Below are positions 1 to 10,849 of a stretch of DNA of 64,000 nt, piece after piece (within the stretch, counting starts at the first letter, position 1; every line of letters begins with the position of its first letter). The position numbers and the translations under genes were made by a program. The stretch spans positions 1 to 64,000 of the forward strand of contig NZ_JACHTF010000016.1 of NCBI RefSeq assembly GCF_014145325.1, read 5' to 3'. The DNA comes from Marilutibacter spongiae (GTDB lineage Bacteria > Pseudomonadota > Gammaproteobacteria > Xanthomonadales > Xanthomonadaceae). The notes under the pieces were generated by a model that was not told where the DNA came from, did not search any database, and saw nothing but the letters and a program-made list of their open reading frames with translations.

Positions 1-145
1 CGCTCATGCCCCCGAACTTGCTCCGCCACAGGTAGTACGACGCCTCGCTGAAGCCGTGCTTGCGGCACAGCTCCTTGACCGGCAGCCCGGCCTCGGCCTC
101 ACGCAGGAAGCCGATGATCTGCTCTTCGGAAAAGCGCTTCTTCAC
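1..145 (-). CDS. IS3-family transposase OrfA, N-terminal part (runs off window)
   Basis: Read on the minus strand this gives MKKRFSEEQIIGFLREAEAG and continues with a helix-turn-helix (VKELCRKHGFSEASYYLWR) to the window edge. This is the standard start of the OrfA DNA-binding protein of IS3-family elements (IS407/IS2-like groups); OrfA binds the element ends and is normally joined to OrfB by frameshifting. The start is a GTG at 145, preceded by an AAGGAG ribosome site seven bases upstream, and I prefer it because the family begins with MKK/MKR. OrfB would lie outside the window, so I cannot say whether the element is complete. Confidence 0.85.
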   Translation of the reverse strand, partial: MKKRFSEEQIIGFLREAEAGLPVKELCRKHGFSEASYYLWRSKFGGMS

Positions 146-212
146 GTCCAATCTCCTTACTCTGGGGAATTGGACTCCAGATCGCCGCGCTACTCAAAAC
201 CGGGGGGACGTC
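1..212 (-). mobile_element. End of an IS3-family insertion sequence
   Basis: The OrfA start is followed by a short leader (146-197) and a run of C residues read as CCCCCCGGTTTTGAG on the minus strand. Many IS3/IS407-group terminal repeats look like this, so the element probably ends close to 212. I cannot see the other end or a target duplication, so the exact boundary is inferred. Confidence 0.6.
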
Positions 213-213
213 G

Positions 214-230
214 CGAGGTCAGCGACCTCG
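214..230. other. Perfect short palindrome beside the IS end
   Basis: CGAGGTC and GACCTCG form a perfect 7-bp stem around a 3-base loop, directly outside the probable insertion-sequence end. It could be a transcription stop or a target-site feature. No T-run follows. The rest of 231-305 shows no gene I can support. Confidence 0.35.
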
Positions 231-565: not shown

Positions 566-1960
566 TTAGAACAGCCGCTTCTTCAAGTCCGAGAACGCAT
601 TGAGGCCGCCACGCCAATCACTTCCGGTTTTCGGCAGGATAAACGGATAGCGCGCGTCGTCTCGGTAGAGCAGCTTGTAGTGCTTCCCATCTTCATGGAT
701 GACGAAACCTATCTCTTCAAGGTCAGCGCGGACGCCTGCGGTCAGTGACGTGTATTGCCTAAAGACCTCCTTCAGCCGCTCCAGAATTTCTTCCCTATCA
801 CCCGGGTTTTCATTGTTCTCTACTAGGCTAGCGAGGACCTGTTGGCGACGAGAGTGGGCGTCTGACGACTCTGCTGCCTTCTTGAGCGCTTCGGTGATCA
901 GCCCCAGTTGTTCCCCTTGATACAAGTCGTTTTCCGTGGTTTCAATCTGAATTGACCTATCGACATCGCGCTTGGCAAAATTTACGTCGTTCTTGTTGTA
1001 GCGAGCACGAACGAGTTCTGACTCTAAGCGTAGAATCTCTTCTTCCTTCGCGGCGATTTCCCGGTCGAAGTGCTCAATGTACTCGTTGATATCGCCTGAT
1101 CCAGAATCCCTCAGCGCATCGAGCTTCTGCCTGGCTGTCATTTCCTGGAGATATGACCAAGTGCATTGGCGACGTATGCGCTGGTAGAGCAGCGACAGCC
1201 TGATCTTCTTCGCTACTGCAGTCTGCAAAGCAATAGAGTCGCTCCATTTGGATGGAAGATAGAGCCACTTCCCAATGCCGTCTGGCCAGTAGATTGCAAT
1301 GGCACCGTTATAAGCGTTCTCACCGAACACACGTCGCATGATCAACGAAGAAAACTTTCGACTTGGTTCGACAACTACGTGAGCCATTCCGGACACCCAC
1401 TTGGCGAGCGTGTTGGGATCAGCAATGGTTCTTTCATCGCTGTCCCGACTAACGTAGACAACCGGCATTACGCTATCGGTGCCTGCGCAGATAATCTTCT
1501 CAGCCAAGTCGGCTTCGTGCTCCGAGAGGAAGATTGGCCTGTCCGAAACTGAGAGAGTTCCGTCGTATCCGCCGGAAAATCTTTCCATCAGCAATTTGAC
1601 AATGTACGGTCGCTTACCCTGCTCGAGACGCTCAACCGGAAACTCTGAGTCCACGTTGAGTTGAATACTCACGAGAAAGTTATCGAAGGACTTGTAGCCG
1701 ATAACGTCGGTTACCCAGCGAATATTGTCTTGGTCTGTTTTCTCGTAGCGAACACCACCGCAGGCGTCTGTACCCGCTTGGTAGTGGCCAAACGAGACAG
1801 ACTCTTCTTCGCCACCAAATCGTCCGTCCCGAGTTCCCTCGGGAATAGCCGTTCGCAACGAAGTGTGCTGACTGCCGACGATCCAAGTTCTGCAGCAGTC
1901 CATGAAATCGGACATGTTGGTGTTTGGGTGGATCGGGAACTGCGTCTTGAACGTGAGCAT
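566..1960 (-). CDS. Unrecognised 464-aa protein with coiled coil and possible HicA-like C-terminal fold
   Basis: The start is the ATG at 1960, just after a G-rich AGGGGGGGA stretch; the frame stays open further upstream but only as non-coding-looking sequence. Residues 1-210 form a mixed globular domain with motifs VVYVSRDSDE, WVSGMAHVVVEPSRKF and NGAIAIYWPDG. Residues about 270-330 are charged and heptad-like (EHFDREIAAKEEEILRLESE), consistent with a coiled coil. The last 45 residues read GKHYKL...PFILPKTGSDWRGG, then a short helix. A G-x-H-Y/H beta hairpin followed by PKT and a C-terminal helix recalls the dsRBD-like fold of HicA-type RNases (inference only). Codon use is visibly less GC-rich than in the neighbours and it sits beside an insertion sequence, so it is probably horizontally acquired. 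I do not recognise the family; a role in phage defence is a guess from context. Confidence 0.75.
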   Translation of the reverse strand: MLTFKTQFPIHPNTNMSDFMDCCRTWIVGSQHTSLRTAIPEGTRDGRFGGEEESVSFGHYQAGTDACGGVRYEKTDQDNIRWVTDVIGYKSFDNFLVSIQLNVDSEFPVERLEQGKRPYIVKLLMERFSGGYDGTLSVSDRPIFLSEHEADLAEKIICAGTDSVMPVVYVSRDSDERTIADPNTLAKWVSGMAHVVVEPSRKFSSLIMRRVFGENAYNGAIAIYWPDGIGKWLYLPSKWSDSIALQTAVAKKIRLSLLYQRIRRQCTWSYLQEMTARQKLDALRDSGSGDINEYIEHFDREIAAKEEEILRLESELVRARYNKNDVNFAKRDVDRSIQIETTENDLYQGEQLGLITEALKKAAESSDAHSRRQQVLASLVENNENPGDREEILERLKEVFRQYTSLTAGVRADLEEIGFVIHEDGKHYKLLYRDDARYPFILPKTGSDWRGGLNAFSDLKKRLF

Positions 1961-8645: not shown

Positions 8646-9161
8646 TCAGTCGACCGTGCAGGTCAGCTCGAACGCGAGCGAGCTGTTCGCCGGCAGCGTG
8701 GGGATCGCCACGCCGGATGCGAGCGCCGCCACCAGGGCCGCGTCGGTCGCCGCCGGGCAGGCCGCGCCGCCGGTGGCATTGCCGCAACTGGCCGTGGTGC
8801 AGGTCAGGCCGGTCGGGGGCGGATTCTGCACGACGGCGCCGTTCGCCGCGTCGGGGCCGGCGTTGGCGACGGTGATCGTGTAGACCGTCTGCGCGCCCTG
8901 GGCCAGGGTGTCGCTGGGCAGGTCGACGCCGCCGGGATTGTTGGCATTGGTGATGCTCAGGTTCGCCTGCGGGTTGCGGACGTTGCTGAAGGTGCAGGTC
9001 AGGTCGTCCCCCGCCGCCGCGGTCAGGCTGAAACTGGTGCCGCTTCCGGAGGGCGTCTGTCCGCCCGAAAGCGCATTCGTGCAGCTGTAGGTGGTGGTGT
9101 AGGTGCCCAGGTCGGCGCCGTTGCTGCCCAGTTCGTTGAAGGTGTACTGCTCGCCGTCCAC
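8646..9161 (-). pseudogene. C-terminal remnant of a DUF11 repeat surface protein
   Basis: About 171 residues in one frame read as a beta-sandwich repeat: QYTFNELGSNGADLGTYTTT, then a Cys-containing strand CTFSNVRNP, then NLSITNANNP and VYTITVANAGPDAANGAVV followed by PPPTGLTC. The last part is the DUF11 (conserved repeat) signature of large bacterial surface or adhesin proteins. No start codon with a ribosome site exists: the frame continues upstream through non-homologous sequence into the BCCT gene's shadow frame. No signal peptide or anchor is present. I therefore read it as the 3' end of a deleted large gene rather than an intact small protein. The 128 bp from 9162 to 9289 contain no gene. 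Confidence 0.7.
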
Positions 9162-9289
9162 GCCATGCCATCGGGCGCCCCTCCATCGGGTGCCCGCGCT
9201 GGATCCCTTGCGAATATGGCCGGAATATAACGTCAGCCCGGAACGCTGCCTGCACGCGGCGTTCACACCGCGGAGCGGGCGACGGGGAT

Positions 9290-10849
9290 TCAGGCCGGGT
9301 TGCCGTCCGTGTCGCTGGCCGTGCCGCGCTCGCGTTCCAGCCAGCGCTTCTCCGCGCGGTAGAGCTCGCGCGCCTCCAGGTCCCACGCACGCATGTCGGC
9401 CGAGAGCACGCGGTGCAGGGATACCACCACCAGCACCATCAGGACCGCGAAAGGCAGGGCCGCCACGATGACCACCGCCTGCAGCGCCTCCAGTCCCCCG
9501 GCGGCGAGCAGCGCCGTCGCCACCGCGGCCTGCAGCACGCCCCAGGTGATGCGGCGCGACAGCGGCGGCTCCTGGGCGCTCTCGCTGGACATGCTGGCCA
9601 GCACCAGGGTCGCCGAGTCGGCCGAGGTCACGAAGAAGCTCATCAGCAGGACGATGGCGGTCCAGGCCAGCACGGTCGCCATCGGCAACAGGTCGGTCAT
9701 CGCGAACAGGACGTTCTGGTAGCCGCGCGCCAGCGCCGAGAGCAGGTCGGCATGGTCGAACATCTCCGCGTGCAGGACCGTGCCGCCGAAGCCGGAGAAC
9801 CACAGGAAGCTCACCATCGCCGGCGCGCAGACCACCCCGAGCAGGAACTCGCGCACGGTGCGGCCGTAGGAGATCTTGGCGAAGAAGGCACCGACGAAGG
9901 GCGCCCAGGCGATCCACCACGCCCAGTAGAAGATGGTCCAGTCGCCGACCCAGGCGCGTTGCGAGAACGGCGTCATCCGCAGGCTCATCGACGGCAGCAG
10001 GTTCAGGTAGCTGCCGAGCGTGGTGGTCAGCGTCTCGAAGATGAAGGCCGTCGGCCCCAGTACGATGACGAAGGCCAGCAGCAGGGTGGCGATCGCCAGG
10101 TTGAGGTTGGACAACCATTTGATGCCGCGCTGCAGGCCGGTCGCGCTGGAGGCCATGTAGAGCACGAAGGCCACGGCGATCACGACCAGCTGGGTGCCCA
10201 GGGTGGCCGGGATGCGGGTGACGTGGCCCAGCCCGGCGGTGATCTGGGTCGCGCCGAAGCCCAGCGTGGTGGCGACGCCGACCGCGGTGGCGACCACGGC
10301 CAGGACGTCGATGGCCTGGCCGGCGGGCCCGTGCACGTGGCGGCCGAACAAGGGCTCGACGAGGTCGCTGACCAGCCCGCGCGCCTTGCGGTTGAACTGG
10401 AACCAGGCCATCGCCAGGCCCATCAGGGCGTAGATCGCCCAGGGATGCAGCCCCCAGTGGAAGAACACGTAGCGCATCGCCGCGCGCGCGGCGGCGTTGG
10501 TTTCCGGCGTGATGCCTTCCGGCGGCCGCTGGAAATGCGACAGCGGCTCGGCCGCGCCCCAGAACACCAGGCCGATGCCCATGCCGGCGGAAAACAGCAT
10601 CGCGAACCAGGAGCCGCGGGAAAACTCGGGTTCGGCCTCATGGCCCCCGATCCTCAAGCGGCCCAGCCGGCCGAAGGCGAGGTAGGCGAGAAAGGCAAGC
10701 ACCCCGAACACGATCACCAGGTACAGCCAGCCGGCGCCGGACAGGGTCGCGAGCTGCACCCGCGCACTCAGGGCGCCGAAGGCCTCCGGCGCCAGGACGC
10801 CGGCCAGCACCAGCAGCGTCAGCAAGGCGACGGATACACGAAAAACCAC
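9290..10849 (-). CDS. BCCT family betaine/carnitine/choline transporter
   Basis: 519 residues with about twelve membrane helices. The family signature is clear in helix 8: WTIFYWAWWIAWAPFVGAF, containing the Trp-box, followed by ISYGRTVREF. An earlier FHWGLHPWAIYALMGL segment is also family-typical. The start is a GTG at 10849 with GGAGAG upstream. These carriers import trimethylammonium solutes such as glycine betaine or choline, driven by sodium or proton gradient, for osmoprotection. The short C-terminal tail (ERERGTASDTDGNPA) lacks the long osmosensing extension of BetP, so strong osmotic gating is less likely. No choline-oxidation genes are nearby. Confidence 0.93.
   Translation of the reverse strand: MVFRVSVALLTLLVLAGVLAPEAFGALSARVQLATLSGAGWLYLVIVFGVLAFLAYLAFGRLGRLRIGGHEAEPEFSRGSWFAMLFSAGMGIGLVFWGAAEPLSHFQRPPEGITPETNAAARAAMRYVFFHWGLHPWAIYALMGLAMAWFQFNRKARGLVSDLVEPLFGRHVHGPAGQAIDVLAVVATAVGVATTLGFGATQITAGLGHVTRIPATLGTQLVVIAVAFVLYMASSATGLQRGIKWLSNLNLAIATLLLAFVIVLGPTAFIFETLTTTLGSYLNLLPSMSLRMTPFSQRAWVGDWTIFYWAWWIAWAPFVGAFFAKISYGRTVREFLLGVVCAPAMVSFLWFSGFGGTVLHAEMFDHADLLSALARGYQNVLFAMTDLLPMATVLAWTAIVLLMSFFVTSADSATLVLASMSSESAQEPPLSRRITWGVLQAAVATALLAAGGLEALQAVVIVAALPFAVLMVLVVVSLHRVLSADMRAWDLEARELYRAEKRWLERERGTASDTDGNPA

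What the first reader, a model, noticed from the sequence alone, without database searches (positions are those of the whole stretch)
566..1960. Unrecognised accessory protein with coiled coil and HicA-like tail beside an IS end
The 464-aa product has no family I know. It combines a globular N-domain, a coiled coil and a C-terminal GKHYKL...PKTGSDWRGG segment that looks like the beta-hairpin/PKT/helix of HicA-type RNases. It is less GC-rich than its surroundings, next to an IS3 element and a small membrane protein. Large coiled-coil proteins with RNase-like tails are common in anti-phage systems, so this is the best candidate here for an undescribed effector.
Basis: partly seen in the sequence, partly recalled or inferred. 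Interest (0 to 1): 0.62.

Follow-up and report, generated by a model that had tools for sequence, protein, structure and literature searches.

The report
Mobile defence protein with toxin-like tail
This gene makes a protein that travels on prophages, plasmids and genomic islands and joins the front half of a catalogued but little-studied anti-virus protein to a tail folded like a small RNA-cutting toxin, so it is probably a one-gene phage-defence device, although no activity has been measured.

Summary
The 464-aa gene (minus strand, 566-1960) is real, foreign in composition (GC 0.52 against 0.71) and under purifying selection. Homologues are rare and scattered: lambdoid prophages (7 of 10 inspected E. 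coli loci) or beside tRNA-Phe (3 of 10), viral contigs, small Klebsiella plasmids, and, at 3 of 10 cellular loci, next to DarTG-like, PDC-S47 or MADS/RM-like genes. Residues 13-342 are homologous to PADLOC's candidate defence protein HEC-07 (profile-profile probability 99.1), but the tail is not. Here the tail is an alpha-beta-beta-beta-alpha domain whose top PDB matches include several HicA toxins (low absolute scores), with the GxH histidine invariant. Residues 140-257 are predicted as a thioredoxin fold without CXXC. No conserved partner was found; the membrane ORF is not conserved. Best reading: a single-gene, probably self-inhibited defence protein with a HicA-like RNase (or RNA-binding) tail, a domain-swapped variant of HEC-07. 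Nuclease activity and defence are untested. A 2026 paper validated an E. coli HicA-domain defence system whose architecture I could not see; it may be this family.

The parts
566..1960 (-). The gene: 464-aa HEC-07-related protein with HicA-like tail
   Evidence: ORF and translation; full-length homologues; purifying selection
1571..1960 (-). Residues 1-130: beta-rich N-terminal domain, fold not assigned
   Evidence: AlphaFold2 secondary structure; only weak Foldseek hints
1190..1543 (-). Residues 140-257: thioredoxin-fold region without CXXC
   Evidence: VIA-align Z 10.2, rmsd 2.7, 102 residues with 3apo; no CXXC in 24 of 24 aligned sequences
974..1090 (-). Residues 291-329: long helix, coiled coil
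   Evidence: AlphaFold2 model; coiled-coil proteins are the weak PDB sequence hits
569..751 (-). Residues 404-464: HicA-like (alpha-beta-beta-beta-alpha) domain
680..682 (-). Codon of H427, the invariant histidine of the GKH motif, proposed catalytic residue (by analogy with HicA, recalled)
   Evidence: invariant
1..214 (.). End of an insertion sequence cut by the contig start
   Evidence: 10 matches in the own genome, 6 within 33 bases of a contig start; transposase-like frame on the minus strand

Best explanation
A single-gene, mobile anti-phage defence protein. The HEC-07-type front (beta-rich domain, thioredoxin-fold domain without redox motif, coiled coil) senses infection and dimerises or scaffolds the protein; the C-terminal HicA-like domain is the effector, most likely an mRNA-cleaving RNase kept inactive within the protein and released on infection, so that translation and phage growth stop. 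Shown by computation: the gene, its domain order, homology to HEC-07, the HicA-like fold and invariant histidine, mobile and partly defence-rich contexts, no conserved partner. Inferred: sensing, dimerisation, self-inhibition, RNA cleavage, protection.
For: Homology to HEC-07 over residues 13-342 (hhalign prob 99.1, E 1.9e-18; PADLOC HEC-07 in 10 of 10 relatives). HicA fold of the tail: Foldseek rank 1 is a HicAB entry (6g26_F, E 0.18, prob 0.77) and rank 4 the S. pneumoniae toxin-antitoxin entry 5yrz_B; VIA rows 1, 2, 5, 6, 8 and 19 are these, 6hpb, 1whz, 4p78 and 4c26, Z 4.3 to 2.8, 55-58 residues aligned (5yrz and 1whz are HicA by recall, their titles do not say so). PADLOC HicA-like 9.2e-9 in a distant relative. 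Invariant H427. Mobile context: 7 of 10 inspected E. coli loci are lambdoid prophages and 3 of 10 lie beside tRNA-Phe; 33 loci in viral contigs; 10 plasmid records. Neighbours at 3 of 10 cellular loci are defence-like. No neighbour family in more than 3 of 19 loci. Precedents read: HicA-domain defence system and antitoxin-free RNase DS-3 (PMC13092281, sections 5 and 7).
Against: Absolute scores of the HicA match are low and two rows of an unrelated ligase tie with it (Z 4.1 and 4.0). No Pfam HicA match; weak profile match to 9 HicA sequences (prob 3.4); window protein only E 0.047 with PADLOC's HicA-like model. 7 of 10 cellular loci had no adjacent defence gene located by me, and the window itself shows none on its visible side. 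No isolated phage of 50,697 records matched. No activity data.
Confidence: 0.52

Rival explanations
1. Same defence role with the ends reversed: the C-terminal HicA/dsRBD-fold domain binds phage or host RNA as the sensor, and the N-terminal half is the effector or recruits one.
For: HicA folds are dsRNA-binding-type folds (PMC10865869 abstract); the N-terminal half is also well conserved and shared with canonical HEC-07, whose tail differs.
Against: The invariant GKH histidine and S/R/N set lie in the tail, the part that differs between HEC-07 branches, as effectors usually do (general knowledge); no known enzyme fold was found in the front half.
Confidence: 0.2
2. A stabilising or regulatory gene of prophages and plasmids (addiction, superinfection exclusion or lysogeny control) whose benefit is to the element and not chiefly defence of the cell.
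For: Fixed place in lambdoid prophages on the opposite strand to the flanking phage genes; small plasmids with a RelE/ParE gene next door.
Against: No partner antitoxin gene recurs; chromosomal copies lie next to defence-like genes at 3 of 10 loci.
Confidence: 0.17
3. A cellular redox or housekeeping protein.
For: Thioredoxin fold at 140-257.
Against: No CXXC in 24 of 24; 1 of 7 genomes of the genus, 9 of 299 of the order, 24 of 5426 E. coli genomes for one variant.
Confidence: 0.03

Closest known systems
HEC-07 (PADLOC-DB 2.0.0; Hma-embedded candidate; source preprint Payne et al. 2024, doi 10.1101/2024.01.29.577857, seen only as a reference)
   Same: Front half, residues 13-342 including the thioredoxin-fold region and the start of the coiled coil; single gene
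   Different: Canonical members L036 and L022 score 602 and 407 bits over the whole model, the window protein 27 bits over part of it; their tail is unrelated to the HicA-like domain (E 0.26)
HicA toxins (PF07927)
   Same: Fold and length of the tail, GxH histidine
   Different: No Pfam match; fused to a 400-residue front; no HicB or other recurrent partner
SMC-HicA fusions (class 14 of Gerdes 2024, PMC10865869)
   Same: C-terminal HicA domain after a coiled coil
   Different: Here 464 aa, no Walker A motif in the sequence and no SMC or ATPase Pfam match
HicA-domain defence system of E. coli in DefensePredictor (PMC13092281)
   Same: An E. coli defence system with a HicA domain among 42 validated of 94 tested (section 5)
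   Different: Architecture and accession not seen (figures and supplements not held); it may or may not be this family

Membership tests
HEC-07 | Homologous N-terminal and coiled-coil part | tested here: met
   hhalign prob 99.1, E 1.9e-18, residues 13-342; PADLOC 3.8e-7, 10 of 10 relatives
HEC-07 | Match over the whole model, C-terminus included | tested here: not met
   Window match ends at residue 402, 27 bits; tail unrelated to four canonical members; two of those four were scored by PADLOC, two were recognised by similarity
HEC-07 | Protection against phage | not testable with these tools
   No paper in the library holds 'HEC-07'; some HECs were verified according to PMC12409356 (passage) and PMC12988326 (passage)
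HicA toxin | Alpha-beta-beta-beta-alpha (dsRBD-type) fold | tested here: met
   AlphaFold2; HicA chains among the top rows of Foldseek and VIA-align, low absolute scores
HicA toxin | Conserved GxH histidine | tested here: met
   H427 invariant (10 rows; 22 rows; 19 rows); role recalled
HicA toxin | Pfam PF07927 match | tested here: not met
   none in the own genome
HicA toxin | Adjacent or fused HicB antitoxin | tested here: inconclusive
   No neighbour family in more than 3 of 19 loci; HicB models were not searched for by name
HicA toxin | RNA cleavage | not testable with these tools
   needs an assay
SMC-HicA (class 14) | SMC ATPase domain | tested here: not met
   No Pfam match at E 1; no GxxxxGK[ST] in the sequence
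Thioredoxin | Thioredoxin fold | tested here: met
   Z 10.2 over 102 residues; Foldseek alone had no match at E 0.001
Thioredoxin | CXXC redox motif | tested here: not met
   0 of 24 sequences
Mobile or island-borne defence gene | Sporadic, on mobile elements or beside defence genes | tested here: met
   neighbour scan 43 PADLOC families among 125 proteins against 11 among 125 control proteins, a rough contrast

The most novel reading that the evidence does not exclude
HEC-07 is a modular defence platform: a conserved sensor front (beta-rich domain, redox-dead thioredoxin-fold domain, coiled coil) is coupled to exchangeable C-terminal toxin-like domains. The HicA-tailed branch would be a genetic context of HicA domains that is not among the 14 listed by Gerdes: an antitoxin-free RNase switched on by infection and spread by prophages and small plasmids.
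Probability: 0.4. Interest if true: 0.68.

Novelty: new variant of a known kind. Interest (0 to 1): 0.52.

Why it matters
It turns a 'hypothetical protein' of E. coli prophages and Klebsiella plasmids into a testable defence candidate, gives the little-studied HEC-07 family a domain anatomy (thioredoxin-fold region, coiled coil, exchangeable tail), and suggests how a HicA-type RNase could be controlled without an antitoxin gene.

Tried and rejected
Membrane ORF as partner: rejected, no relative in the fetched loci. Conserved neighbour: none in more than 3 of 19 loci. Housekeeping thioredoxin: no CXXC and scattered distribution. PDB sequence searches with the protein, the family profile and the C-domain profile gave only weak, mostly coiled-coil or unrelated hits. 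Foldseek with the full model had no match at E 0.001 in PDB or BFVD, and the same holds for the C-domain in PDB. NCBIfam gave nothing near a cut-off for the protein. The first viral scan with the single sequence found no relative, and one with a canonical HEC-07 sequence found none either. 'mad2' (PDLC04134) rings in 14 of 14 control genomes, so it is no proof of a MADS system; NCBIfam puts MAD2, MAD5, DarT and DarG at these loci but all below their curated cut-offs, hence '-like'. The split gene in G387 is interrupted by a transposase-like ORF; the three pieces in G807 were not examined further. The G013 copy has an in-frame TAG. Rows dropped before the neighbour scan: 5 window ORFs and 4 others of the 134 listed, leaving 125. 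Controls: 125 of 171 ORFs drawn at random from 13 stretches of 7 of the genomes; only 25 of the 43 matched families were shown, and how many proteins they stand for is not told. Literature: no paper holds 'HEC-07' or WP_000873394; other searches were made; the Payne preprint and Brenes and Laub 2025 are not held. Papers seen in part: PMC10865869 (outline with abstract, section 5, passages), PMC13092281 (outline with abstract, sections 5, 7, 15, passages), PMC12988326, PMC12111858, PMC10855318, PMC11411939, PMC11980606, PMC12242098, PMC12409356 (passages only).

Full report
Observation. The gene is a 464-aa ORF on the minus strand (566-1960), with one match in its own genome. Its GC is 0.523, against 0.712 for the window from 2264 on. 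Synonymous sites are near saturation while amino-acid changes are few (window against L015: pS 0.87, pN 0.21; C-terminal domain pN 0.13), so it is a selected protein-coding gene. Bases 1 to about 214 match 10 places of this genome, this one included and six of them partial; 6 of 10 lie within 33 bases of a contig start. The contig, and the window, therefore begin at a repeat, and what lay beyond the IS cannot be seen. On the other side stands a metabolic gene with POR and DUF6537 domains.

Family. In the order, 9 of 299 genomes match, 7 of them (own included) over the whole length, one of these 7 (G013) with an in-frame stop codon; the other two are a fragment and a canonical HEC-07 relative. 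In the genus only the window's own genome matches, 1 of 7. Samples of the phylum and class gave 8 of 398 and 7 of 369, own genome included and several partial. A Paenibacillus has a 31% identical homologue. Viral contigs gave 33 loci, plasmids 10 records, 6 with at least 80% of the query, and E. coli 24 of 5426 genomes for one variant. No isolated phage among 50,697 records matched three members used as queries.

Domain anatomy. AlphaFold2 on 24 aligned sequences gave mean pLDDT 82.8, pTM 0.60. Residues 140-257 match thioredoxin folds by VIA-align (best Z 10.2, rmsd 2.7, 102 residues), though Foldseek alone reached only E 0.0072; none of 24 sequences has a CXXC. A long helix (291-329) follows, a low-confidence stretch (323-343), then helices and a C-terminal alpha-beta-beta-beta-alpha unit. 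Folded alone this unit (pLDDT 77) has as Foldseek rank 1 a HicAB entry and as rank 4 the S. pneumoniae toxin-antitoxin entry 5yrz (E 0.18 and 0.41). VIA-align puts 5yrz, 6g26, 6hpb, 1whz, 4p78 and 4c26 at ranks 1, 2, 5, 6, 8 and 19 (Z 4.3 to 2.8, 55-58 residues); a pantoate ligase ties at ranks 3 and 4. That 5yrz and 1whz are HicA proteins is recalled; the other four titles say so. The absolute scores are low; the weight lies in several independent HicA structures on top with whole-domain coverage. By sequence, PADLOC's HicA-like model matches 5 of 10 relatives at E 0.01 or better, a more distant relative at 9.2e-9 and the window protein only at 0.047. PHROG 2053, of unknown function, matches the window's tail at 9.6e-9. 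Pfam HicA does not match, and a comparison with 9 HicA sequences is weak (prob 3.4, P 0.013), though the GKH/GSH register is the expected one.

Relation to HEC-07. PADLOC's candidate HEC-07 matches the window protein at 3.8e-7 and 10 of 10 relatives at E 0.01 or better. Two canonical members met in the searches (L022, L036) score 407 and 602 bits over nearly the whole model. A profile-profile comparison of the window family with these two and two similar proteins gives prob 99.1, E 1.9e-18 over residues 13-342, and nothing for the C-terminal domain (E 0.26). The two branches share the front and differ in the tail. I could not read the preprint that defines HEC-07. One paper says that some HEC systems were verified later (PMC12409356, passage), another that several HECs including HEC-06 were active (PMC12988326, passage), a third studies a HEC-04 homologue (PMC12111858, passages); nothing I saw tells whether HEC-07 was tested.

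Genomic context. Of 10 E. coli loci inspected (34 records were found), seven are lambdoid prophages in which the gene lies between the P/ren genes and ybcN, on the opposite strand to both; three lie beside tRNA-Phe, two of them with integrase genes and one cut short among IS elements. Klebsiella carries it on 5.9-kb plasmids, the inspected one a mobilizable ColRNAI plasmid; broken copies occur on larger plasmids. Of 10 cellular loci, DarT- and DarG-like genes follow it on the same strand in L017, PDC-S47 lies upstream in L016, and S-subunit-like and methyltransferase genes resembling MAD5 and MAD2 lie upstream on the same strand in L018; at the other seven I located no adjacent defence gene. 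Among 125 neighbours at the 10 loci, 43 PADLOC families matched at 1e-10, against 11 among 125 proteins from other places in 7 of these genomes; related models can hit the same protein, so this is a rough contrast. No neighbour family recurs in more than 3 of 19 loci, which suggests that the gene acts alone.

Mechanism. The best-supported reading is a one-protein defence device with its own sensor and a HicA-like effector held in check within the protein. Shown: anatomy, homology, contexts. Inferred: trigger, inhibition, RNA cleavage, protection. DefensePredictor gives precedents: a validated HicA-domain system, and DS-3, an RNase without cognate antitoxin that its authors suggest is auto-inhibited (PMC13092281, sections 5 and 7). 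The chief uncertainty is whether the tail cuts RNA or only binds it.

Novelty. The front half is catalogued, HicA is known, and a HicA role in defence has been proposed (PMC10865869) and in one case validated (PMC13092281). The combination is not among Gerdes's 14 HicA contexts, and no paper in the library names HEC-07. I could not see the figure and tables of PMC13092281, so an E. coli member may already have been tested; I put this at about one in four (a judgement, not a result).

Noticed in passing
L036 250-1869, P0002 (L022), L083, L084: Canonical HEC-07 proteins end in a shared motif like LRIYYFWD...HL that is not the HicA-like tail; it recalls RelE-type toxins to me, but no Pfam model matched two of them.
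   Followed up: no
L036 1883-2851: The gene after a canonical HEC-07 looks like a RelE-like segment joined to a UvrD-like helicase (by eye from the translation).
   Followed up: no
L040 (G387), G807:C1:52188-57183, L021 (G019): Broken copies: G387 is interrupted by a transposase-like ORF, G807 lies in three pieces, G019 in two frames beside a transposase-like ORF.
   Followed up: partly
L019 8008-8622: A gene with a weak SymE (endoribonuclease) match, below its cut-off, lies next to the homologue.
   Followed up: no
L028 733-2458, L029 7976-9713, L031 1-1723: Two genes of unknown function (PHROGs 8728 and 8026 in L028) precede the homologue in three related viral contigs.
   Followed up: partly
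window 8646-10118: An ORF with SpaA prealbumin-like and DUF11 domains, probably part of a surface protein; the frame upstream overlaps another ORF.
   Followed up: no
L042 3983-7056: mcrC and an AAA ATPase gene lie about 5 kb from the homologue in the same E. coli prophage region.
   Followed up: no
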